A DNA stretch of 64,000 bases, taken from Chitinophagaceae bacterium. Its GTDB lineage: Bacteria; Bacteroidota; Bacteroidia; Chitinophagales; Chitinophagaceae. Position numbers and translations under genes: made by a program. The stretch spans positions 1-64,000 of the forward strand of contig CANFLL010000001.1 in the NCBI GenBank assembly GCA_947447825.1, read 5' to 3'. Under the pieces are notes generated by a model. It was not told the DNA's origin and ran no database searches. It saw only the letters and a program-made list of their open reading frames with translations. The stretch's first letter is position 1. Each line of letters begins with the position of its first letter. Positions 349-59,976 of this stretch are shown one piece after another.

Positions 349-622
349 AAATAATACTTTACAATATCGGCAAGTTATCTAATCGAATGCACACGCCACA
401 GGGGATGCGCTAGCCCTTGTAGATTGAAGTGAGTAACCCGGACTAGTTGGGGTGGTTTGCAACCTTCGCTTGCACAACGATTGCGGAAGACCTGCTTCCA
501 TCTTCTATACAACATTCAAGTATCCTCTTTGATAAGAGTAACTGATTCACGACACACCTCGCGCCAGAGGGAAACTTTGACCTTAGTTTATTCCAGTTAC
601 AAACTGGTTCGACTAGAAGGCA

Positions 623-7490: not shown

Positions 7491-7679
7491 GTTGAATAAT
7501 ACGTTACTAATCACGAATAAACATCAACAATGTGTCAATGTAGCATACACAAGGTCGAATAAACCTCAGGCGAGGTCGAATAAACTCCACCCATGTGTCA
7601 ATGTAACATACATTTTGACGAATAAAATACTGCCAACATTAAAAATAACACGGGTAATCTGAAATAAACAGCACCTATT
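7491..7679. repeat. 21-nt periodic dyad array 1 (nine units)
   Basis: Nine units in exact 21-nt register. Units begin near 7491, 7512, 7533, 7554, 7575, 7596, 7617, 7638 and 7659. Seven carry a GTCGAATAAAC-type head (the outer ones degenerate, for example TTGAATAAT and TGAAATAAAC). The units at 7533 and 7596 instead carry TGTCAATGTA followed by CATACA. Dyads include CCTC/GAGG around 7564-7575 and AATGTA-ACA-TACATT at 7600-7614. Edge units are decayed but keep the spacing. Confidence 0.85.
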
Positions 7680-12033: not shown

Positions 12034-12120
12034 GTTAGTTGTTAGTGTTTAGTTATTAGTTGTTAGAAATACAATTTGATCGCTAACCACTAATAACTAA
12101 CCACTAACCACTAACAACTA
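12034..12120. repeat. Inverted-repeat spacer of TTAGTT words
   Basis: The left half repeats GTTAGT(T)-type words and the right half their complements (CTAACCACTAATAACTAAC), so the spacer can form a long imperfect hairpin. The same vocabulary is reused at 17895-17982 and 55089-55170. Confidence 0.8.
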
Positions 12121-14010: not shown

Positions 14011-16809
14011 ATGTATAAAATTCTACTGCTTTCTTTTTTTGTGTGTATCGTATCTGAACTATTTTCACAGACTACGGGGGTTATTTCTGGTAAACTAATA
14101 GACTCAGTTGGTAAACAGCAGCTCAGATCTGCATCCATTTCTGTAATGGACGCTAATGATTCTACGGTTTTAGTGTTTGGATTGAGTAAAGAAAAAGGAG
14201 TCTTCGAAATAAAGAATGTGCCATTAGGTTATTTTATTTTGCAGATAAGTTATCAAGGATTTAAAACTGTTTCAAAAAAAATCAATCTTACAGAAGAACA
14301 ACCGAACCTCGATCTAGGAAATGTGTATATGAAGGTTGAGGCCAAAGAATTTGAAGAGGTAGTAGTAACCCAAAGTCCTATTTCTGTAAAAAATGATACA
14401 TTAGAATATAGAGCGAGCAGCTTTAAAACAAAACCAAACGCAGTAGTAGAAGATTTACTAAAAAAACTACCAGGCGTAACTGTGGATAATGATGGAAATG
14501 TTACTGCCCAAGGCGAACAAGTGCAACGGATTTTTGTGGATGGAAAACGCTTTTTTGGCAATGACCCCAAGATGGCAACCAAGAACCTTCCTCCAGACAT
14601 TGTTGAAAAAATTCAGGTATATGATGCCATGAGCGACCAAAGTGCTTTTAGCGGTTTTGATGATGGCACACGCATTAAAACCATCAACATAACCACAAAA
14701 AAAGGTAGAAAGAGGGGCTATTTTGGGCGAGGTATTGCAGGTGAGGGTAGCGATGGACGATATGAGGCAAATGTGAATTTTAGTAAGTTTAAGGGTGATC
14801 AAAAAATTACCGCCTTAGGGCAAACAAACAATATAAATATACAAGGTTTTACGCCTCAAGATGGTGGTGGTAGCGGACAGAATCGTGGTGGCATAACGGT
14901 AACGAAAGCAGCAGGATTGAATTATACGGATGTTTTGTTTAGAAATGCTGACGTATCGGGAAGTTATTTTTATAATAATTTACAGACTAACAAGGAAAAT
15001 AAAACTTTTACTGAAAGATTTACGCCAAATAGTGACACGTCTAGCTTTAGTAATGCTACCTCTACTTTTGAAAGAAAAAGTATTAATCACCGCATCAACC
15101 TAAACTGGGAACAAAAGTTTGATACAGCCAATATGCTAGTTATTCGACCAGACATTTCTTTTAATGATGGTAATTCTACCAATATTAGTGCATCAAACAC
15201 GTCAAAAAGCAAAGTTTTTAATAAAGACCCTATTAACCAAAATAACTACACGCACACTAGTAATGGCAAAAATAGCAGTGTGAGTGGAAGCATTTCGGCT
15301 ACTTATCGCCATCGGTTTAAAAAGCTAGGGCATACATTTTCTGTTTCTGTTAATGGCAATTTGAATAATAATGGTAGTGATGGCAACAACCTTTCTACCA
15401 CAAATTATTTTATACCTTATGATTCAACAAAACTGATTAATCAGATTAGTAAATATGAAGGCAAAAGCAACAATATTGGTGGTAATTTCTCGTACACCTT
15501 TCCTATAGCCAGAAACAATATTATTGAATTAAGCTATGGAAATAATTTTAGTAGGAATACTTCAGATGCGAAAGTTCACTCTTTAAATGGGATTACAACA
15601 CTTTATACAGACTTAGTGGATAGTCTTTCGAACAACTTTATTAATACAAATAGTTCAAATAGGGCCACAATAGGGTATAGGGCATTGATTGGAAAATGTA
15701 ATTTTAGTATTTCAAATGGTGTTCAGTTTACAAATCTTAGTAGTCAAAACATTAGCAAAGACACAAATATTTCTAGAAACTTTACCAATATATATCCTAC
15801 TGCAAGCTTCATGTACCAGTTTACCAAACAAAGACATTTACGAATAAATTACAACGGTCGTACCAATCAACCGAGTATTTCGCAAATGCAGCCAGTGCCA
15901 AATAATAGCAATCCTGCCAATATTATTACGGGGAATCCAGGTCTTACACAAGAGTTTAACCATAGTATTCACTTATTGTACACGTCTGTAAACCCCAATA
16001 GTTTCAATAATATTTCTATCATGTTCAACGGGGGTCTTACTTCCAATAAGGTAGTTTCTAGTATTACCCAACTGGCCAATGGTTATCAGACTACTACCTA
16101 TCAAAACCAAAATGGAGCATTTAATGCTAGGGTTCATGTTAGTTATGGTTTACAATTGAAGAATCCGAAAAGCAATTTGAGCTTCATCACTAATGCGGGT
16201 TACAACCGAGATATAAGCCTTATTAATACAGCAACAAACTATACCTACACTTCAAATATGGGTGAAAACATAAACTGGACAATGAACCTAAAAGAAAAGT
16301 TTGACATGAATTTCAATGTCGGTTACAATTATAACCTTGTAGAATACTCTATAAGAAAACAGAACAATAGGAACTATTATACAACCAGTTTTATGTTAGA
16401 ACCTACCTACACTTTTGATGGAGGATGGGTTTTAGGTAGCACTTTCAATTATTCTTATAATAGTGGATTGGCATCAGGCTATAATTCTAGCCTTCCATTG
16501 TGGAATGCCAGTTTTGCCAAACAACTATTTAGTAAAAAACAGGGTGAAATTAAAATTGGTGTCTACGATTTACTAAATCAGAATGTTAGTGTAAGCCGTA
16601 ATGCTACTTCAAACTACATTCAGGATGTGCAGAACAATGTGTTGAAACGTTATTTTCTAGTAACGTTTACATACAATTTACGCAAGTTTCCAGGGGAGAA
16701 TAGGCAGCTTGATAAAATTATTAATAAGATGACTGAAGGCACAGATAACAGTGGTGACAGGCAAAGAGAACGAAGCAGCGGCGGTGGCGGCGGCAAAAGA
16801 AGAGGCTAG
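14011..16809 (+). CDS. Outer-membrane beta-barrel protein (TonB-receptor-like)
   Basis: A 932-residue protein: signal peptide (about 1-19), a carboxypeptidase-regulatory-like beta-sandwich (about 22-115, GVISGKLIDSVGKQQLRSAS), a plug-like region (about 118-240, with LEYRASSFKTKPNAVVEDLL, KLPGVTVDNDGNVTAQG and RIFVDGKRFFGNDP), then an Asn-rich barrel of the OMP_b-brl_3 type. The C-terminus is unusual: after the last strand (YFLVTFTYNLRKF) come about 40 charged residues ending in a Gly/Arg-rich SGGGGGKRRG rather than a terminal Phe. No SusD gene is adjacent, so it is not a standard SusCD uptake pair. The substrate is unknown. Confidence 0.88.
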   Translation: MYKILLLSFFVCIVSELFSQTTGVISGKLIDSVGKQQLRSASISVMDANDSTVLVFGLSKEKGVFEIKNVPLGYFILQISYQGFKTVSKKINLTEEQPNLDLGNVYMKVEAKEFEEVVVTQSPISVKNDTLEYRASSFKTKPNAVVEDLLKKLPGVTVDNDGNVTAQGEQVQRIFVDGKRFFGNDPKMATKNLPPDIVEKIQVYDAMSDQSAFSGFDDGTRIKTINITTKKGRKRGYFGRGIAGEGSDGRYEANVNFSKFKGDQKITALGQTNNINIQGFTPQDGGGSGQNRGGITVTKAAGLNYTDVLFRNADVSGSYFYNNLQTNKENKTFTERFTPNSDTSSFSNATSTFERKSINHRINLNWEQKFDTANMLVIRPDISFNDGNSTNISASNTSKSKVFNKDPINQNNYTHTSNGKNSSVSGSISATYRHRFKKLGHTFSVSVNGNLNNNGSDGNNLSTTNYFIPYDSTKLINQISKYEGKSNNIGGNFSYTFPIARNNIIELSYGNNFSRNTSDAKVHSLNGITTLYTDLVDSLSNNFINTNSSNRATIGYRALIGKCNFSISNGVQFTNLSSQNISKDTNISRNFTNIYPTASFMYQFTKQRHLRINYNGRTNQPSISQMQPVPNNSNPANIITGNPGLTQEFNHSIHLLYTSVNPNSFNNISIMFNGGLTSNKVVSSITQLANGYQTTTYQNQNGAFNARVHVSYGLQLKNPKSNLSFITNAGYNRDISLINTATNYTYTSNMGENINWTMNLKEKFDMNFNVGYNYNLVEYSIRKQNNRNYYTTSFMLEPTYTFDGGWVLGSTFNYSYNSGLASGYNSSLPLWNASFAKQLFSKKQGEIKIGVYDLLNQNVSVSRNATSNYIQDVQNNVLKRYFLVTFTYNLRKFPGENRQLDKIINKMTEGTDNSGDRQRERSSGGGGGKRRG

Positions 16810-16841
16810 TAAAATTTGTGATTGATTGATGGTTTGTTATG

Positions 16842-16876
16842 GAAGACTTCACTTTTATGTGGAGTCTTCTTTTTTT
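16842..16876 (+). terminator. Rho-independent terminator
   Basis: GAAGACTTCAC and GTGGAGTCTTC form an 11-bp stem (one T-G wobble) with a 6-nt loop, followed by seven T. Confidence 0.93.
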
Positions 16877-16902: not shown

Positions 16903-17112
16903 TTTCCGTCGTTAAACGGGTCTGTTTTGTAATAAAACCTTTCAGTTCCGTCGCTAAACGGGTCTGTTTTGTGACAAAACCTTTCTGTTCCGTCGTTAAA
17001 CGGGTCTGTTTTGTGACAAAACCTTTCTGTTTCGTCGTTAAACGGGTCTGTTTTGTGACAAAACCTTTCGGTTTCGTCGCTAAACGGGTCTGTTTCGTGA
17101 CAAAACCTTTCG
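16903..17112. repeat. 21-nt periodic dyad array 2 (ten units, A/B alternating)
   Basis: Ten units of exactly 21 nt alternate between two types, so the higher-order period is 42 nt. Type A contains CCGTCGTTAAACGG (arms CCGT/ACGG). Type B contains GTTTTGTGACAAAAC (arms GTTTTG/CAAAAC, loop TGA). Boundaries are at 16903, 16924, 16945 and so on to 17112; a decayed start of an eleventh unit (GTTTCATAACG) follows. The array lies 278 bp before the next gene. Confidence 0.95.
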
Positions 17113-17390
17113 GTTTCATAACGCACAATTTGGTACTTGTGCTGGCAAAGTTCCTTTCAATCTGCCCATTCATCAGGTATTTAAGAGCCGAATATATATT
17201 TTAAAATACAAAAAACTTATATGCTCTCCATCTATTCTTATTAAATTAGTGGTATGCTTTAGTTAAGCCAAAACTGTCAAAAAAGTAGATGAAAGCAATG
17301 ATTTCTCCCCAATTTTTAATTTTTGTATTAAAATTGTACTAGTTTGCTTCATTTCTTTTACTTTTACCACTACCAAATAAACCCAATAGA

Positions 17391-17894
17391 ATGGCTGATA
17401 GAAATTATGTTTTAACAAAAGAAGTAGCTGAACAGAAACTACAAAGACTGGCTTTGGAAGTTGCGGAGAATCTGGAAGGCGATAATGCAGAACTGATAAT
17501 TATAGGTATTAGGAATAGCGGAAAAGTAGTTGCAGAAAAAATAGGTGCTTTATTGAAAGGTCATCTCAATGTGCCCATTAAAATTGTTTCTGTGATTCTA
17601 AATAAACAAATGCCGAAGGAAGTTTTTATTAGTGAACCGAATATTGATTTCAATAATAAAAATGTTATTGTGATGGATGATGTTGTTAATAGTGGCAAAA
17701 CGTTGCTTTATGCTTTGAGACCATTATTATATTTTCAGCCAAAAAAAATTCAAACATTGGTTTTAGTGGAAAGGTTACATAAACTTTTTCCTATAAAATC
17801 AGATTACATCGGGCTTACTATTGCCACTACATTAGAAGCCAACATTTTAGTTGAAACAAAAGATGGCGAAATTGTTGGGGCATATATAGAGTAA
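17391..17894 (+). CDS. PyrR-like phosphoribosyltransferase
   Basis: A 167-residue type I phosphoribosyltransferase. The PRPP-binding motif is VIVMDDVVNSGKTLLYAL (about residues 90-107), and GIRNSGKVVAEKI is the upstream loop. The C-terminal half (LVERLHKLFPIKSDYIGLTIATTL, shown here as ERLHKLFPIKSDYIG and TIATTLEANILVE) follows the PyrR pattern (R.LP...DYVG..I.T). PyrR proteins are UMP-sensing attenuators with weak uracil phosphoribosyltransferase activity. No pyr gene lies next to it, so whether it regulates or only salvages is open. The length (167) is close to PyrR. Confidence 0.82.
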   Translation: MADRNYVLTKEVAEQKLQRLALEVAENLEGDNAELIIIGIRNSGKVVAEKIGALLKGHLNVPIKIVSVILNKQMPKEVFISEPNIDFNNKNVIVMDDVVNSGKTLLYALRPLLYFQPKKIQTLVLVERLHKLFPIKSDYIGLTIATTLEANILVETKDGEIVGAYIE

Positions 17895-17982
17895 TTGTTA
17901 GTTATTAGTGGTTAGTTGTTAGTGTAAAGTTTAATAAACAAATAGCTAATAACTAACCATTAATAACTAACCACTAATAATT
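17895..17982. repeat. Inverted-repeat spacer of TTAGTT words
   Basis: The words TTAGTTATTAGTGGTTAG on the left and CTAATAACTAACCATTAAT on the right can pair imperfectly. Same vocabulary as 12034-12120. Confidence 0.75.
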
Positions 17983-18003
17983 AAATAATTAATAACTAGA
18001 AAT

Positions 18004-27090: not shown

Positions 27091-27637
27091 TTAATTTTCT
27101 ATTTGTTAGTATTCTACAACAATTACCAATCTTTTTATGAAAGTAAAGATATGTTTCTTCTTTATACTGTTGACCAAATAGAAAAATCACTCCTTCTTAA
27201 TCCCCCCTCCAATAATAAATCTTCAAAGAATTGCGATACCTATAACTTTACTACTTCGGAGAAACAGTATGGCTTTAGAATGACTGTTTCTGCATAGCCT
27301 CACCTTCGTTAAAACCTTTCATTTTACAATTTATTGAGTAGTGCAGACTTTAAACTCGCTGGAGTTTAAAGTAAACTAGTTGGGATTTAAAGTAAACTCG
27401 CTGGGATTTAAATTAAACTCGCTGGGATTTAAAGTAAACTCATTGGAGTTTAAAGTAAACTCGCTGGAGTTTAAAGTAAACTCGTTGGGATTTAAATTAA
27501 ACTCGCTGGAGAATAGTTACTCAAGACTGCCATTTTAACCTATATAAACCCAATAGTATCATCACTAAATTATTTATTAGAAAGAATATTTATCAATCAC
27601 AAAAGCTTGCTTAGGTAAGTGGTTAAAACGTAGCAAT
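27091..27637. other. Spacer between divergent MTase and array-3 gene
   Basis: No gene is seen. The region carries the methyltransferase promoter side and array 3 (27334-27522), followed by about 115 bp of AT-rich leader for the next plus-strand gene. Confidence 0.7.
27334..27522. repeat. 21-nt periodic dyad array 3 (nine units)
   Basis: Seven clear units of 21 nt start at 27355, 27376, 27397, 27418, 27439, 27460 and 27481, with decayed units on both sides in register. The core is ACTCGCTGGAGTTTAAA in some units and CTCGCTGGGATTTAAA in others. At the first unit TTTAAACTC-GCTG-GAGTTTAAA is a perfect dyad (arms of 9). A second variable position alternates AAAGTAAA and AAATTAAA. Confidence 0.94.
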
Positions 27638-35216: not shown

Positions 35217-35572
35217 AACTTTTACGTCAATCAACCCGTGCTTTACGTTAGGCAACCCCGTGATATAGGTAAAAGACCACAATTTTTGATAGAGATAACC
35301 CATGGTTTAGGTAAATAAGTGCGTGCTTTACGTCAAACAACCCGTGCTTTAGGTAACCAGACGTAAAGCACGGGTTGATTGACGTAAAATTTTACGTAGG
35401 CAGACGTAAAGCTTTACGTATGAGGACGTAAAATTTTACCTAACAAACCTAAAGTTTTAGGCTAACAACGTAAAGCACGGGGTTGCCTAACGTAAAGCAC
35501 GGGTTGATTGACGTAAAACTTTACGTAGGGAGACGTAAAATTTTACGTCTCCCTACGTAAAGTTTTTAAGAT
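35217..35572. repeat. 21-nt periodic dyad array 4 with long inverted arms
   Basis: About 15 units of 20-22 nt. The left half reads CGTGCTTTACGT- and the right half its complement ACGTAAAGCACG, so the array turns over near 35357. Arms 35217-35262 and 35476-35521 are reverse complements over 46 nt with one mismatch. Nested arms 35330-35351 and 35364-35385 match over 22 nt with one mismatch. In the right half, the unit cores are perfect dyads with different centres: ACGTAAAATTTTACGT, ACGTAAAGCTTTACGT and CCTAAAGTTTTAGG. Positions 35515-35566 form a 52-nt perfect palindrome. Confidence 0.95.
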
Positions 35573-37062: not shown

Positions 37063-40000
37063 CTATTTTCCGTTTATCACAATTTTTTGTGTGTTATAAT
37101 TAACTCCTGAACCTTGTAGTGAAACATAATACACACCTTTCTTTAACCCTTGAGTTAGATTGATGGATGTGTTGTTCTGACCAACAATTGCACTAACTGA
37201 AGAAGAACTTACTAATCGACCTGTATTATCGAAAATGCTTAACTGTAATTGTGTGGCCGATGGGCTAGCAAAGCTTACTTTGAAAGCACCATTGTTAGGG
37301 TTAGGACTGATGCCCACCGTTTTAGCTTGCAACGTTTTTTCGTAAGCTACATCCACTTTGCTAAATGCTGCATTTGTGATGCCAGCAGTGAAGTTGATGG
37401 ATTGACCTGTTGGATTTTCGATGTTGTAAACAACAGAAGTAACATCACTTAAATCGATAGAAGCTGGTAAACTAGCATCAGTTGATTTGAAATCGCTTGC
37501 ACCAATTTGGTACGTTTGACCGTCTTGCAAACCAGTAATGTAGTAGGTATATTGACTCTTCCAGTTGCTAACACTTTCTTTAGTGATAGTAACCTTCATG
37601 TTTAAGCCTTCTGCACTTGTGCTTGCAGTAAACTTGAATGATTTATAACCAGTAAGGTTTTCAGCACTTGCACCACCTTTCAAATATTTGTAAATAGATA
37701 CATAGCTTGGCGTTGTAACATTTGCTTTAACGTCTCTCAATAGAGCGTATTCATCATTACTAACCACTCTGCTGCTATTGTTTGATATATTAAATTGTGC
37801 CACCGAAGTGTTGTTGTCACCACTTGTACCCCAAATGCCATCTGCCATATACAGCATATCTGCTTTAGCGTTATTAAACACCACACTAATATTTGCATCG
37901 TAAGAATCACTTACAGGAATAGAAACAGTAGATTTTGCATTAGCACTAATTGTGAATGGTACAATTACTTTATTGCTAGAACCACTGTTTTCAGTAGCAT
38001 GTTGTGTTAATTCGAAATAACCAGATGTGTTAGCAGTTTTGTTATTGATGGTAAGATTAAGGTTAGTGCCAATTCTGTTTGCAGCAGAAACATACGCTTT
38101 AGGAAGATCGTTTCCAGTAGTCAATTCAACAACAGGCATTGTAGTTTGCAATCTGCTCAATATTTCCTTAACCATTGTTGTTGCATCAGTAGGTGTTGCA
38201 GCCCAAAGTTGATAGTTAACCATTGTGTCTTCGCCAATGTAGTCGGTCATTAACCATTTGCTTTGCAATGAGTAAGTGTTTCTACCAGCTTTTTGACCAG
38301 CAGAGAAACTGATTGCATATTCCTTAGTTCCATCAGCTTGAAGAATGGTGTAACGGATGAAAGGAAGACTAGCAATTTGAATGTTTTCTACGTTCAACAA
38401 TTGCGCACCTTTCAATCTGTCGCAGATTGGTTTAGTGTGCGAATAGATTCCTCCAATAGTCTTAGTTGCAAAAGCAACAGCCTTAGGTGAATTATTCAAT
38501 GTGAAATCTATTGTGCGAACCTCAATAGCATTTGTAATGGAAGTTAGGTCGGTAACAGAAGCAGATTTATCGTAAGCAGTGTATGCACTATTTACTTTGT
38601 AAGGCATTACAGATGATAGGTTGCTAACTGTAGTTCCAAAAGTGGTATAACTACCTTTTTTAGGCGTTGCAATTAACTCTTCTGCACTGTATTTAACAAC
38701 ACCATTTTTGCCATTCTTGTATAGGTTAAAGTTTCGTGTGCCTATAGCTGCACCAATTGGTTTACTTTCTAAACCACCAGTTGCACCAGAAGTAACTGTA
38801 CCAGTATCGCAACTAACTACAAAAGGAAGTGTTGCTGTGGCTGAACATCCACCGTTAGTTACTGTGTAAGTAATGTTTGTTTTGCCATCAGCAATAGCCG
38901 TAACAACACCTGTTGCATCAACAGTTGCAACTGAATTATCTGAAGAAGCCCATGTTCCACCAACGGTTGTTTCGGTAAGTGTGGTTGTAGTTGTTGCACA
39001 AATAGTATCTGTTCCCACAATTGCATCAACTACCGGAGAAGGCGTAACAGACAATACTAAAGTTGCTGAACTGTCACAGCCAGCTGCATTTGTTAAGTTT
39101 GCAGTTTGCGCTCCTGCAGCAATGAAAGAAAGACCATTCCAAGAGTATGGTAGTTCATTTGAACAAATAGTTTTTGTAGTAGTAGATGTGCTAGATGAAC
39201 TTACCGTTAACACCAGCGTTGCAGCACTATCACACCCTGCCGCATTCTTTAAGTAAATAGTGTAAGAACCAGTGGTATTGTAGCTTGTACCATTCCAAAC
39301 GTAAGGAAGAGATTTGCTACAAACGCTCACTACAGTTGAAGAGGTAGAAGTTTCTTTTACAGCCAATACTAAAGTAGCCGCACTATCACAGTTAACTGCA
39401 TTTGTTAAATGAATGGTGTAAGAACCTGCTGCATTGTAGCTTGTACCATTCCAAGTATAAGGAAGAGAACTACCGCAAACGCTTATTGTTGTTGTAGATG
39501 AAGTTGCGGCTTTAACGGTTACGTTCATTGTATCGCTACAACCAGTAATTGAATTATTCAACACATAACTATACACACCAGCAGATGCACCAGTGTAAGT
39601 AGCTACTGAATTTAAAACATCAATTTGTGTGAAAGAAGCACCAGAAGGATTAGTAGATAATGGACTCCAACCACCAATGTGCCATCCTACAGAGTTGTAG
39701 AATTTAACACTTTCTGTACTGCAAACCACAGCGTCAGAACCAGCATTAGGCTTTGGATTAACTGTAAGTACTAAAGAAGCAGCACTATCGCAACCTGCTG
39801 CATTCGTTAGGTGAGCAATGTAAGTTCCAGCAGAAGTATATGTTGAACCATTGAAAGTGTAAGAACCACCTTCGCAGATGCTTGCAGAAGTTGCAGAAGT
39901 AGAATTTGCTTTTATTGTTAACACCAGCGTTGCAGCACTATCACAACCTGCTGCATTCGTTAAATGTGCGGTTTGAGTACCTGCTGCATTAAAGGTTAAA

Positions 40001-41439
40001 CCATTCCATGAATAGGGTAATTGACTAAGACAAACACTAAGTGTATTAGCAGAAGTAGAGGTTGCTTTTAATGATAATACTAAAGTTGCAGCACTATCAC
40101 AACCTGCTGCATTTAATAAATGTGCAGTTTGGGTACCTGCTGCATTAAAGGTTAAGCCATTCCAAGTGTATGGCAATGCACTGGGGCAGATGCTTAATGT
40201 ATTTGAAGAAGTAGAATTTGCTTTTACTGTCAATACTAAGTTTGCAGTGCTATCACATCCACCAGCGTTTTTAAGAAGTGCTGAATATGAACCAGCGGTT
40301 GAATAAGTGCTACCATTAAATGTGTAAGAACCTCCAGCGCAAATACTAGCATTAGTTATTGAAGATGTTGCTGCACAAGCAACAGCACAACCAGTTACGC
40401 TTGGAGTAAAAGGATAATGATGTAATTCACCACCATTTTGGGTGAATGATTGCCCAATTACTTGTCCTTCAATATTTGATGAACTGTTTTTTGTAATTAC
40501 AGCGTTAGGTGCAAAAACAGTTCCTTCAACAGTTGCACCAGAAGGTATGTTAAGTGTTGTGGTGTTGTAGAAATTATAGATGATGTATGGAGCGTTTGAA
40601 CCACCAATGCCAGATTGATTCCACACATTCCAGTTATAAGTACCAGGTGCATCAACGTTAATTACTAAAATGTGGCTAGCATCGGGGCTATTGTTGAAAG
40701 TAATGTTATTAGCATTTGTTAAATCAGTGCCAGAAACGTTTAGAACATTAGTTCCTGAAGCAAGCGTAATTTTTACTTGACCACTGGTTAATACACTGTT
40801 GATGGTTGAACCAAATACATTTCCATTAGGATTAGAAAGTATTTTACCTGAGGTGCTGCATGCTGCCAAACTAACGGCTGTTGCTTTCATGGTTGTAAAA
40901 GCAGAAGAGAAACTTATTTCAGAAGCTGTATTCGCATCACAAACTGGGTTATTAGAAGCAGAAACTGCTGTGCCCCAAGAGTTGTTGTGTGCATTGATAT
41001 TTATGTTTGAACCAGAAGCATAAGAAGCATTGCTAGCGGTTACATACATATTTGAAGCTGCATTATTGTTATCTACATACCAAACTTTTATGTTTGATGA
41101 GGCACAGTTACCTATTTTAAGATAACTAGTACCATTAACTTGTAATGAACCACTAGATAAGTTAACCTGCCCACCTACAAACAATCCAATTGGAACATTG
41201 CTTACTTTAAAAGTTGAATTGCTGTGAATGTTTACTTGGTAACCACCTGCAACAGTTAAGTTGCCTCCAATGGCAATTCCACCTTCAGACTCGTTAGTGA
41301 TTAGTGTTGCATCATTTTGCAAAAAGGCATTAAACCCAAGTGCAGGTGCTGTCGGACTCTGTGCTGAAGCACAGAAACAAATTAAGAACGTTAGTGCGAA
41401 GAAGGAAAGTAACTTGTTTGTCATAACTTTTTTTGTCAA
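37063..41439 (-). CDS. Large T9SS-secreted adhesin, choice-of-anchor A type
   Basis: A 1458-residue surface protein. Order: signal peptide (about 1-26); choice-of-anchor A domain (about 30-345, LGFNAFLQNDATLITNES, then EGGIAIGGNLTVAGGY); eight tandem copies of about 50-60 residues (about 350-780) with LPYSWNGLTFNAAGTQTAHL and AAGCDSAATLVLT; a BIG2/Ig-like domain (about 790-880); a long beta-rich region; and a T9SS sorting domain (last 80 residues, VGISPNPNNGAFKV to TQKIVINGK). The Cys in each CDS motif is conserved and may pair. Such proteins are exported by T9SS and displayed on the surface, typically as adhesins. The ligand is unknown. Confidence 0.9.
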   Translation of the reverse strand: MTKKVMTNKLLSFFALTFLICFCASAQSPTAPALGFNAFLQNDATLITNESEGGIAIGGNLTVAGGYQVNIHSNSTFKVSNVPIGLFVGGQVNLSSGSLQVNGTSYLKIGNCASSNIKVWYVDNNNAASNMYVTASNASYASGSNININAHNNSWGTAVSASNNPVCDANTASEISFSSAFTTMKATAVSLAACSTSGKILSNPNGNVFGSTINSVLTSGQVKITLASGTNVLNVSGTDLTNANNITFNNSPDASHILVINVDAPGTYNWNVWNQSGIGGSNAPYIIYNFYNTTTLNIPSGATVEGTVFAPNAVITKNSSSNIEGQVIGQSFTQNGGELHHYPFTPSVTGCAVACAATSSITNASICAGGSYTFNGSTYSTAGSYSALLKNAGGCDSTANLVLTVKANSTSSNTLSICPSALPYTWNGLTFNAAGTQTAHLLNAAGCDSAATLVLSLKATSTSANTLSVCLSQLPYSWNGLTFNAAGTQTAHLTNAAGCDSAATLVLTIKANSTSATSASICEGGSYTFNGSTYTSAGTYIAHLTNAAGCDSAASLVLTVNPKPNAGSDAVVCSTESVKFYNSVGWHIGGWSPLSTNPSGASFTQIDVLNSVATYTGASAGVYSYVLNNSITGCSDTMNVTVKAATSSTTTISVCGSSLPYTWNGTSYNAAGSYTIHLTNAVNCDSAATLVLAVKETSTSSTVVSVCSKSLPYVWNGTSYNTTGSYTIYLKNAAGCDSAATLVLTVSSSSTSTTTKTICSNELPYSWNGLSFIAAGAQTANLTNAAGCDSSATLVLSVTPSPVVDAIVGTDTICATTTTTLTETTVGGTWASSDNSVATVDATGVVTAIADGKTNITYTVTNGGCSATATLPFVVSCDTGTVTSGATGGLESKPIGAAIGTRNFNLYKNGKNGVVKYSAEELIATPKKGSYTTFGTTVSNLSSVMPYKVNSAYTAYDKSASVTDLTSITNAIEVRTIDFTLNNSPKAVAFATKTIGGIYSHTKPICDRLKGAQLLNVENIQIASLPFIRYTILQADGTKEYAISFSAGQKAGRNTYSLQSKWLMTDYIGEDTMVNYQLWAATPTDATTMVKEILSRLQTTMPVVELTTGNDLPKAYVSAANRIGTNLNLTINNKTANTSGYFELTQHATENSGSSNKVIVPFTISANAKSTVSIPVSDSYDANISVVFNNAKADMLYMADGIWGTSGDNNTSVAQFNISNNSSRVVSNDEYALLRDVKANVTTPSYVSIYKYLKGGASAENLTGYKSFKFTASTSAEGLNMKVTITKESVSNWKSQYTYYITGLQDGQTYQIGASDFKSTDASLPASIDLSDVTSVVYNIENPTGQSINFTAGITNAAFSKVDVAYEKTLQAKTVGISPNPNNGAFKVSFASPSATQLQLSIFDNTGRLVSSSSVSAIVGQNNTSINLTQGLKKGVYYVSLQGSGVNYNTQKIVINGK

Positions 41440-52697: not shown

Positions 52698-53296
52698 TTG
52701 AATCTTCACTTCTATATAAAAATGGGGGGAATTAACCGAAAAGTCAGGAATGGTATTTCGCAAAATAAGAAGAAGTAATTGAGTAAAAGTGGATCAATTT
52801 AATGACGCTTAAGTTTAGAGGACGGGTTGCTACTAAAGATCTTTACCACGAAGGACAAAAAGAAAAAACAAAGAACATAAAGGTTTATAGTTCCTTACAC
52901 GCTGTCCCCATTTTGTCAATCGGATTGCCTCGCTTGACAATATTATTGCTTCGCTAGACAATCGGAATGATTCGTTTGACAATCGGATTGCGTCCTTTGA
53001 CAATCGGATTGCCTCCTTTGTCAATCGGATTGCCTCGCTTGACAATATTATTGCTTCGTTTGACAATCGGATTGTCTCGCTTGACAATCGGATTGAGGTA
53101 ATTGACAATCGGATTGTCAATTTTGATTGTGGCTACAAGCTGAAACTTTTTATGGATGGTATTAAACGATTTTACGATATCGCAGTTTAAAAATTCTAGT
53201 ACTCACACCGTGTTAATTTTGCTATAAGCACTAAATGTGTAGTTGATGACCTCAGTATTTAAAACAATATTTTTTACCCCTCAGCCTTATTAAACA
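52698..53296. other. Spacer with array 5
   Basis: No gene is seen. A minus-strand open frame here (52833-53120) is produced by the 21-nt repeats only, giving heptads such as AIRLSSE. The array is at 52915-53124. Confidence 0.8.
52915..53124. repeat. 21-nt periodic dyad array 5 (ten units)
   Basis: Ten units of exactly 21 nt. Unit starts: 52915, 52936, 52957, 52978, 52999, 53020, 53041, 53062, 53083, 53104. The core is CAATCGGATTG (CAATC-G-GATTG, a perfect dyad around one base) in seven units, and CAATATTATTG (CAATA-T-TATTG) in units 2 and 7. The paired changes C to A and G to T keep the dyad, while unit 3 (CAATCGGAATG) breaks it. Units 1-2 and 6-7 look duplicated at 105 nt. Flanking linkers are CCTCGCTT or similar. 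Confidence 0.97.
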
Positions 53297-59724: not shown

Positions 59725-59976
59725 ATCAATTTCGATATTCTATCAATAAATAAAGCCAATATCGGCTTGCCGATTTTGGATATCTTCATACCGATGGCGA
59801 TAATCGGTATCATTATCATCAATATCTTCCAACCGATTGTCTTCATCTATATAAAGATGGTCGACTTATTCATACCGATAATGACAATCGTTATACAGAT
59901 TTTTGCCATCGGTTTATCGATGATGATAATCTGTATACAGATATTTACAATCGATGTGCCGATTGTAAGCCAATTA
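59725..59976. repeat. 21-nt periodic dyad array 6 (twelve units)
   Basis: Twelve segments in exact 21-nt register (starts 59725, 59746, 59767, 59788, 59809, 59830, 59851, 59872, 59893, 59914, 59935, 59956). The better units begin ATACCGAT and end ATCGGT; others begin ATACAGAT or end ATCTGT. The boundary between 59914-59934 and 59935-59955 forms the perfect palindrome ATCTGTATACAGAT. Other perfect dyads are ATCGGC/GCCGAT at 59761-59774 and TACAATCG/CGATTGTA at 59946-59967. Several middle units are decayed. Confidence 0.92.

What the first reader, a model, noticed from the sequence alone, without database searches (positions are those of the whole stretch)
16903..17112. Array 2: alternating A/B units, 42-nt super-period
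Two different 21-nt units alternate five times with few changes. Type B has the perfect GTTTTG/CAAAAC hairpin; type A has CCGT/ACGG or GTTT/AAAC pairings. Regular alternation of distinct dyads resembles two interleaved binding-site types or a two-hairpin repeat. The low divergence suggests recent expansion.
Basis: seen in the sequence. Interest (0 to 1): 0.75.

Follow-up and report, generated by a model that had tools for sequence, protein, structure and literature searches.

The report
Two-helical-turn palindromic DNA repeat array
The repeat is real, and it is one of an estimated 330 short palindromic repeat arrays that sit between genes about every 10 kb in this uncultured Chitinophagaceae bacterium; nearly all share the same 21-base rhythm (two turns of the DNA helix) although their sequences differ, which suggests a DNA-level structural role that has not been tested.

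Summary
The array is confirmed: ten 21-bp units at 16904-17113, alternating A/B as five 42-bp dimers (94% match). It is not unique. A 1.26-Mb sample of this genome holds 90 arrays of at least 100 bp (about 330 genome-wide by extrapolation). In an unbiased scan 75 of 82 intergenic arrays have periods at multiples of about 21 bp. Unit sequences fall into many families; this family has five arrays in the genome. Dyads are about tenfold enriched over column-shuffled arrays. Orientation relative to transcription is random, which argues against an RNA or promoter role. Array positions are significantly over-regular (gap CV 0.54 against about 0.92 at random; median gap 9.6 kb), and this repeats in a congeneric genome. 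Seven of nine syntenic sites there also carry an array, two with unrelated units. One family is the core of a ~705-bp MITE-like element, close in kind to the BrickBuilt and MITE464 elements of Porphyromonas gingivalis. Best reading: a two-turn-phased palindromic minisatellite acting at DNA level, spread partly by MITE-like elements and possibly maintained as a chromosome-organising element. The A/B alternation is an ordinary higher-order repeat. Function is inferred, not shown.

The parts
16904..17113 (.). The array: ten 21-bp units alternating A/B, i.e. five 42-bp dimers
16904..16924 (.). First A unit (A units start at 16904, 16946, 16988, 17030, 17072)
   Evidence: CCGT/ACGG in copies 1-3, TCGT/ACGG in copies 4-5
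16925..16945 (.). First B unit (B units start at 16925, 16967, 17009, 17051, 17093)
   Evidence: perfect GTTTTG-TGA-CAAAAC dyad in copies 2-4
17114..17222 (.). Degenerate last unit plus a 'tail' shared (72% over 109 bp) with the right flank of the sister array on contig C69; left flank not shared
16841..16870 (+). Likely intrinsic terminator of the upstream gene, lying between that gene and the array
   Evidence: 12-bp stem followed by a T run
14011..16809 (+). Upstream gene: CarboxypepD_reg + OMP_b-brl_3 outer-membrane beta-barrel protein
17391..17894 (+). Downstream gene: PyrR-like phosphoribosyltransferase
27351..27510 (.). Another array of the same class (TAAACTC-GCTG-GAGTTTA-AAG, 21 bp)
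   Evidence: both flanks shared with the array at contig C5:40038
35297..35566 (.). Degenerate array of the same class with 21/22-bp spacing (ACGTAAAATTTTACGT type)
52913..53116 (.). Another array of the same class (TTGACAATC-G-GATTGTCAA, 21 bp)
7506..7636 (.). Shorter, more diverged array with 63-bp super-period
59869..59966 (.). Short (98 bp) array with 42-bp super-period

Best explanation
The feature is one of an estimated 330 intergenic palindromic minisatellites in this genome whose units are held at two turns of B-DNA (20-22 bp, usually 21), so that inverted half-sites recur on the same face of the helix. The units act at DNA level, most likely as a docking lattice for a DNA-binding or architectural protein, or as a cruciform or supercoil-responsive element, and one such array is kept roughly every 10 kb as a chromosome-organising element. 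Arrays spread at least partly inside short non-coding MITE-like elements. Each is then reshaped locally by slippage or unequal exchange; here that amplified an A/B dimer into five 42-bp copies. Shown here: the architecture, the period constraint, the dyads, the lack of orientation preference, the over-regular spacing in two genomes, the partial positional conservation with sequence turnover, and the MITE-like carrier for one family. Inferred: that a protein or cruciform uses the array, and that the spacing reflects chromosome organisation.
For: Period: 75 of 82 intergenic TRF arrays of at least 100 bp have periods at multiples of about 21 bp. Dyads: 175 perfect 6-bp-arm dyads against 16.6 in column-shuffled arrays, and 5.9 per kb against 1.8 per kb in array-free intergenic DNA; 51% of arrays individually beat column shuffles at p<=0.05. 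In arrays whose two halves are unlike, the second-best dyad lies 19.5-21.5 bp from the best in 13 of 32, with 4.4 expected. DNA rather than RNA: all three gene-orientation classes carry arrays, same-family arrays are oriented 9 with and 8 against transcription, and G.T pairs are not clearly preferred over A.C. Spacing: gap CV 0.54 against about 0.92 at random (P<0.0005), median 9.6 kb, repeated in congener G004, 0.56 against 0.86 (P about 0.001); array-free intergenic classes are less regular. Only 1 of 96 neighbouring pairs is of one family. Turnover at fixed sites: 7 of 9 syntenic sites carry an array in G004, two with unrelated units. MITE carrier.
Against: No binding protein or cruciform was identified. 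Predicted curvature is no higher than the period alone gives. Covariation within dyads is only weakly above shuffled (60 against 38 double changes). Density varies strongly among relatives: 5 arrays in 214 kb of G007 and none in 200 kb of UBA1930, so the arrays cannot be essential across this group. At the pyrR locus itself no relative examined has such an array within the 1.5 kb upstream stretch. Over-regular spacing could also come from transposition immunity or from selection against clusters.
Confidence: 0.42

Rival explanations
1. A BrickBuilt-like case: the arrays are minisatellite cores of non-autonomous MITE-like elements of many families, with no host function. The palindromes matter only to transposition or slippage, and spacing reflects target immunity or purging of clusters.
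For: Family 2 is a ~705-bp element with inverted ends AATTCTACTTTGACA/TGTCAAAGTAGAATT and a central array, with many paired ends about 600-700 bp apart in the genome. Other families share flanks. TIR-like 14-mers matching at 13-14 positions flank 11 of 108 arrays against about 3.5 expected. P. gingivalis MITEs carry 23-nt and 41-nt internal tandem repeats (PMC4596501).
Against: Most arrays, this one included, have no detectable TIR. Five family-1 arrays have different flanks apart from one 109-bp tail shared by two. It does not by itself explain why dozens of unrelated families share one period or why different families avoid each other.
Confidence: 0.33
2. Local gene regulation: A and B are two kinds of transcription-factor site acting on the neighbouring genes.
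For: Real dyads at fixed spacing.
Against: The same family sits between tandem, divergent and convergent genes. No relative examined has such an array within 1.5 kb upstream of pyrR. A dimer period is the commonest form in unrelated arrays.
Confidence: 0.08
3. RNA-level hairpin array: a terminator, stability element or small RNA.
For: Strong predicted folds on both strands; dyads have 3-4 nt unpaired centres like loops.
Against: Orientation relative to transcription is random (9 against 8); G.T is not clearly favoured (105 against 82); no credible Rfam match; a separate terminator already lies upstream.
Confidence: 0.07
4. Neutral minisatellite produced by replication slippage at hairpins.
For: Copy-number differences and dimer or trimer super-units are typical of slippage.
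Against: Slippage gives no known reason for a near-universal two-turn period, over-regular spacing in two genomes or arrays with different units at the same site.
Confidence: 0.1

Closest known systems
BrickBuilt MITE of Porphyromonas gingivalis (Klein et al. 2015, PMC4596501)
   Same: Bacteroidota; strictly intergenic; short tandem-repeat core (23 nt) with strain-variable copy number; predicted stem-loops; leader and tail with TIRs, matched here by family 2
   Different: One 23-nt repeat in 19 copies there; here many unrelated unit families at 20-22 bp with dyad enrichment and regular spacing; this particular array lacks detectable TIRs
MITE464/PgRS of P. gingivalis (41-nt internal tandem repeats; described in PMC4596501)
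   Same: 41-nt period, equal to two ~20.5-bp units, seen here in several arrays
   Different: Single family; helical phasing and dyads not reported in the passages read
REP/BIME elements (PMC2817692, PMC3733652; abstracts only)
   Same: Intergenic palindromes in alternating orientation, mosaic arrays, high copy per genome; gyrase and nucleoid-protein binding known
   Different: Conserved REP sequence classes with GTAG/CGTC tags and RAYT transposases; no 21-bp tandem lattice
BOX elements of Streptococcus pneumoniae (PMC3049150)
   Same: MITE-like modular element with a variable number of internal tandem units (boxB)
   Different: Fixed boxA/boxC ends and one family; enriched between convergent genes, which these arrays are not

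Membership tests
BrickBuilt-type minisatellite MITE | Spacer-free internal tandem repeat of about 20-40 nt | tested here: met
   21/42-bp tandem, no spacers
BrickBuilt-type minisatellite MITE | Terminal inverted repeats in leader and tail | tested here: not met
   No TIR pair bounds this array; met for family 2 elsewhere in the genome
BrickBuilt-type minisatellite MITE | Leader and tail conserved among copies | tested here: not met
   Only a 109-bp right tail is shared, with 1 of 4 sister arrays
BrickBuilt-type minisatellite MITE | Strictly intergenic | tested here: met
   all five family members lie between predicted genes
BrickBuilt-type minisatellite MITE | Target-site duplication / empty site | tested here: inconclusive
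   One empty site compared for another array (C24:6876), boundaries not sharp; none found for this array
REP/BIME | GTAG- or CGTC-tagged conserved palindrome common to the genome | tested here: not met
   Unit sequences differ between arrays, many families; no tag at the stem foot by inspection (A units hold CGTC, but inside the dyad)
REP/BIME | Associated RAYT transposase | not tested
   Not searched
CRISPR array | Identical repeats separated by unique spacers | tested here: not met
   Head-to-tail units, no unique spacers
Structured RNA of a known family | Match to an Rfam model above the curated threshold | tested here: not met
   only sub-threshold eukaryotic microRNA models

The most novel reading that the evidence does not exclude
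A bacterial genus maintains a near-regular lattice of about one ~200-bp palindromic array per 10 kb, each with its own sequence but the same two-turn helical phase and dyad symmetry, recognised by structure rather than sequence, as domain-scale chromosome-organising elements: a functional bacterial analogue of interspersed satellite DNA.
Probability: 0.27. Interest if true: 0.87.

Novelty: new variant of a known kind. Interest (0 to 1): 0.62.

Why it matters
Bacterial interspersed palindromes are usually one or a few sequence families per species. Here dozens of unrelated sequences share one geometry and avoid each other along the chromosome in two species. If the arrays organise the chromosome, they would be visible, countable marks of domain structure about every 10 kb, open to test by Hi-C, supercoil mapping and pull-down. 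If they are MITE cores, they extend the BrickBuilt idea to a genome-wide scale and call for a transposition-immunity explanation of the spacing. Some arrays lie at contig ends, so they probably also fragment short-read assemblies.

Tried and rejected
Intrinsic curvature: bend per 105 bp is 84.7 degrees for arrays and 85.0 for column-shuffled arrays that keep the period, so curvature is not selected beyond the period; wedge values were recalled from memory and used only for comparison. Transcription-terminator or RNA role: orientation and G.U tests negative. Promoter role: promoter-like matches are at shuffle level. Coding origin: no ORF of at least 100 aa covers the array, although 21 bp keeps frames open in some arrays. 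Plasmid or phage origin: no match. Orthologous conservation at pyrR: none found in relatives within 1.5 kb upstream. In G004 the orthologous OMP gene has an unrelated array (GGGAACACGTGACAGAAAGTT type) about 800 bp downstream. The 10.5-bp dyad spacing was first read as extra evidence; it follows automatically from tandem palindromes and is not counted. For the same reason the second dyad at half a period says that each half is itself palindromic, not that two sites are independent. The idea that all arrays lie in TIR elements was tested and only partly holds.

Full report
What is there. Type B carries a perfect GTTTTG-TGA-CAAAAC dyad in copies 2-4, with one mismatch in copies 1 and 5. Type A carries CCGT/ACGG in copies 1-3 and TCGT/ACGG in copies 4-5. 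The array lies between an outer-membrane beta-barrel gene, which has its own likely terminator at 16841-16870, and a PyrR-like gene.

It is one of very many. In 1.26 Mb of its own genome (an uncultured Chitinophagaceae, judged from its named relatives; 4.65 Mb, 187 contigs) there are 90 arrays of at least 100 bp, 84 of them placed between two predicted genes, or about 330 genome-wide by extrapolation. An unbiased tandem-repeat scan gives 82 intergenic arrays of at least 100 bp, of which 75 have periods at multiples of about 21 bp: 21 (18), 41/42 (26), 62/63 (18), 82-85 (11), 105 (1) and 126 (1). Heptamer-type repeats and a few odd periods make up the rest. Mean array length is 212 bp, about ten units. 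The 42-bp A/B super-period of this array is therefore the commonest form, an ordinary higher-order repeat that arises when a dimer of diverged units is the block that expands.

Families. All-against-all comparison of 133 arrays from two genomes gives many families and many singletons. The family of this finding has five arrays in its genome at the search threshold (C1, C51, C69, C18, C33) and relatives in two congeners. Those five sit between tandem (2), divergent (2) and convergent (1) gene pairs. The unit is not scattered singly.

Geometry. Perfect dyads are about tenfold more frequent than in column-shuffled arrays and threefold above other intergenic DNA, and half of all arrays individually beat their own column shuffles. 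Arrays of period 41-43 whose two halves are unlike still tend to have palindromic halves: the second-best dyad is 19.5-21.5 bp away in 13 of 32 arrays, with 4.4 expected. For example, contig C10:28517 alternates CACGATAGCGCTATCGTG with CTTGAATAACTTTCAAG. The conserved property is thus the helical phase and the dyad, not the sequence. Predicted curvature is only what the period gives.

DNA or RNA. Arrays show no strong preference for convergent, divergent or tandem gene pairs. Same-family arrays are oriented 9 with and 8 against transcription. Non-Watson-Crick pairs in dyads are 105 G.T against 82 A.C on the sense strand, not a clear RNA signal. Compensatory changes are only weakly above shuffled. 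This favours a DNA-level property.

Spacing. Gaps between arrays are much more even than random choice of intergenic regions: CV 0.54 against 0.91-0.94, with 0 gaps under 2 kb against 7 expected and 2 under 4 kb against 15. The result holds with stricter candidate lists, with unassigned and short arrays included, and in the congener G004. Array-free long, convergent and divergent intergenic regions show CV 0.65-0.98, so a weak regularity of gene layout exists but does not reach the array value. Neighbouring arrays belong to the same family in only 1 of 96 pairs, so homology-driven deletion between neighbours is an unlikely cause.

Evolution. G004 has an array at 7 of 9 syntenic non-coding sites. 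Several are nearly identical in the two genomes; two have unrelated units in the same intergenic region. Arrays are sparse or absent in other relatives: 5 in 214 kb of G007 and none in 200 kb of UBA1930.

Mobility. One family (TGACTCAGGTGAGTCGTCGAC) is the core of a ~705-bp element with terminal inverted repeats AATTCTACTTTGACA/TGTCAAAGTAGAATT; matching end pairs about 600-700 bp apart occur at many loci of the genome. Other families share flanks more loosely. TIR-like ends are found at 11 of 108 arrays against about 3.5 expected, so a MITE carrier is demonstrated only for a minority. The array of this finding has no TIR; its right 109 bp are shared with one of four sister arrays.

Relation to known systems. 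The nearest known elements are the BrickBuilt (23-nt) and MITE464/PgRS (41-nt) minisatellite MITEs of Porphyromonas gingivalis, also Bacteroidota (PMC4596501). BOX elements (PMC3049150) and REP/BIME (abstracts) are more distant. This array resembles a BrickBuilt core in anatomy but fails the tests for TIRs and for conserved leader and tail, so it is not filed as a member. The paper searches found no description of such a two-turn array class in Chitinophagaceae; the library holds open-licence papers only.

Verdict. Observation confirmed; the two-site reading is not needed; recent local expansion is supported. The array belongs to a genome-wide class of two-turn palindromic minisatellites that is over-regularly spaced. 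A DNA-structural or chromosome-organising role is the best single explanation but is inferred; a selfish MITE-minisatellite origin with immunity-like spacing is a serious rival.

Noticed in passing
window 27351-27510, 35297-35566, 52913-53116, 7506-7636, 59869-59966: Further arrays of the same 21-bp palindromic class with different unit sequences.
   Followed up: yes
G000 C1:135918-136625 (in L126), C1:211738-212446 (in L130), C2:33583-34310 (in L016), C10:35575, C20:12578, C33:29332: A ~705-bp MITE-like element with inverted ends AATTCTACTTTGACA and a central 21-bp array; matching end pairs at many other loci. Its autonomous partner was not sought.
   Followed up: partly
window 12083-12120 and 17932-17998; many other loci: A second class of intergenic repeats built of heptamers (TTAGTTA/TTAGTGG); 7 x 3 = 21, also seen in relatives. 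Not explained.
   Followed up: no
window 414-499 (-): Group II intron D1D4-2 match just above the Rfam gathering threshold.
   Followed up: no
window 39893-40257: 156-bp tandem repeat (2.3 copies) inside the large ORF 37063-41439 on the minus strand.
   Followed up: no
L069, L077, L095, L096, L184-L190 (G007); L070, L097, L098, L191 (G011); L172-L181 (UBA1930/G029): Array density varies widely among relatives, from about one per 10-12 kb (G000, G004, possibly G011) to none in 200 kb (UBA1930), so the class expanded or was lost by lineage.
   Followed up: partly
contig starts G000:C29:1, G011:C46:1 (L070), G011:C2:1 (L097): Arrays occur at contig ends, so short-read assemblies of this genus probably break at arrays and undercount them.
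   Followed up: no
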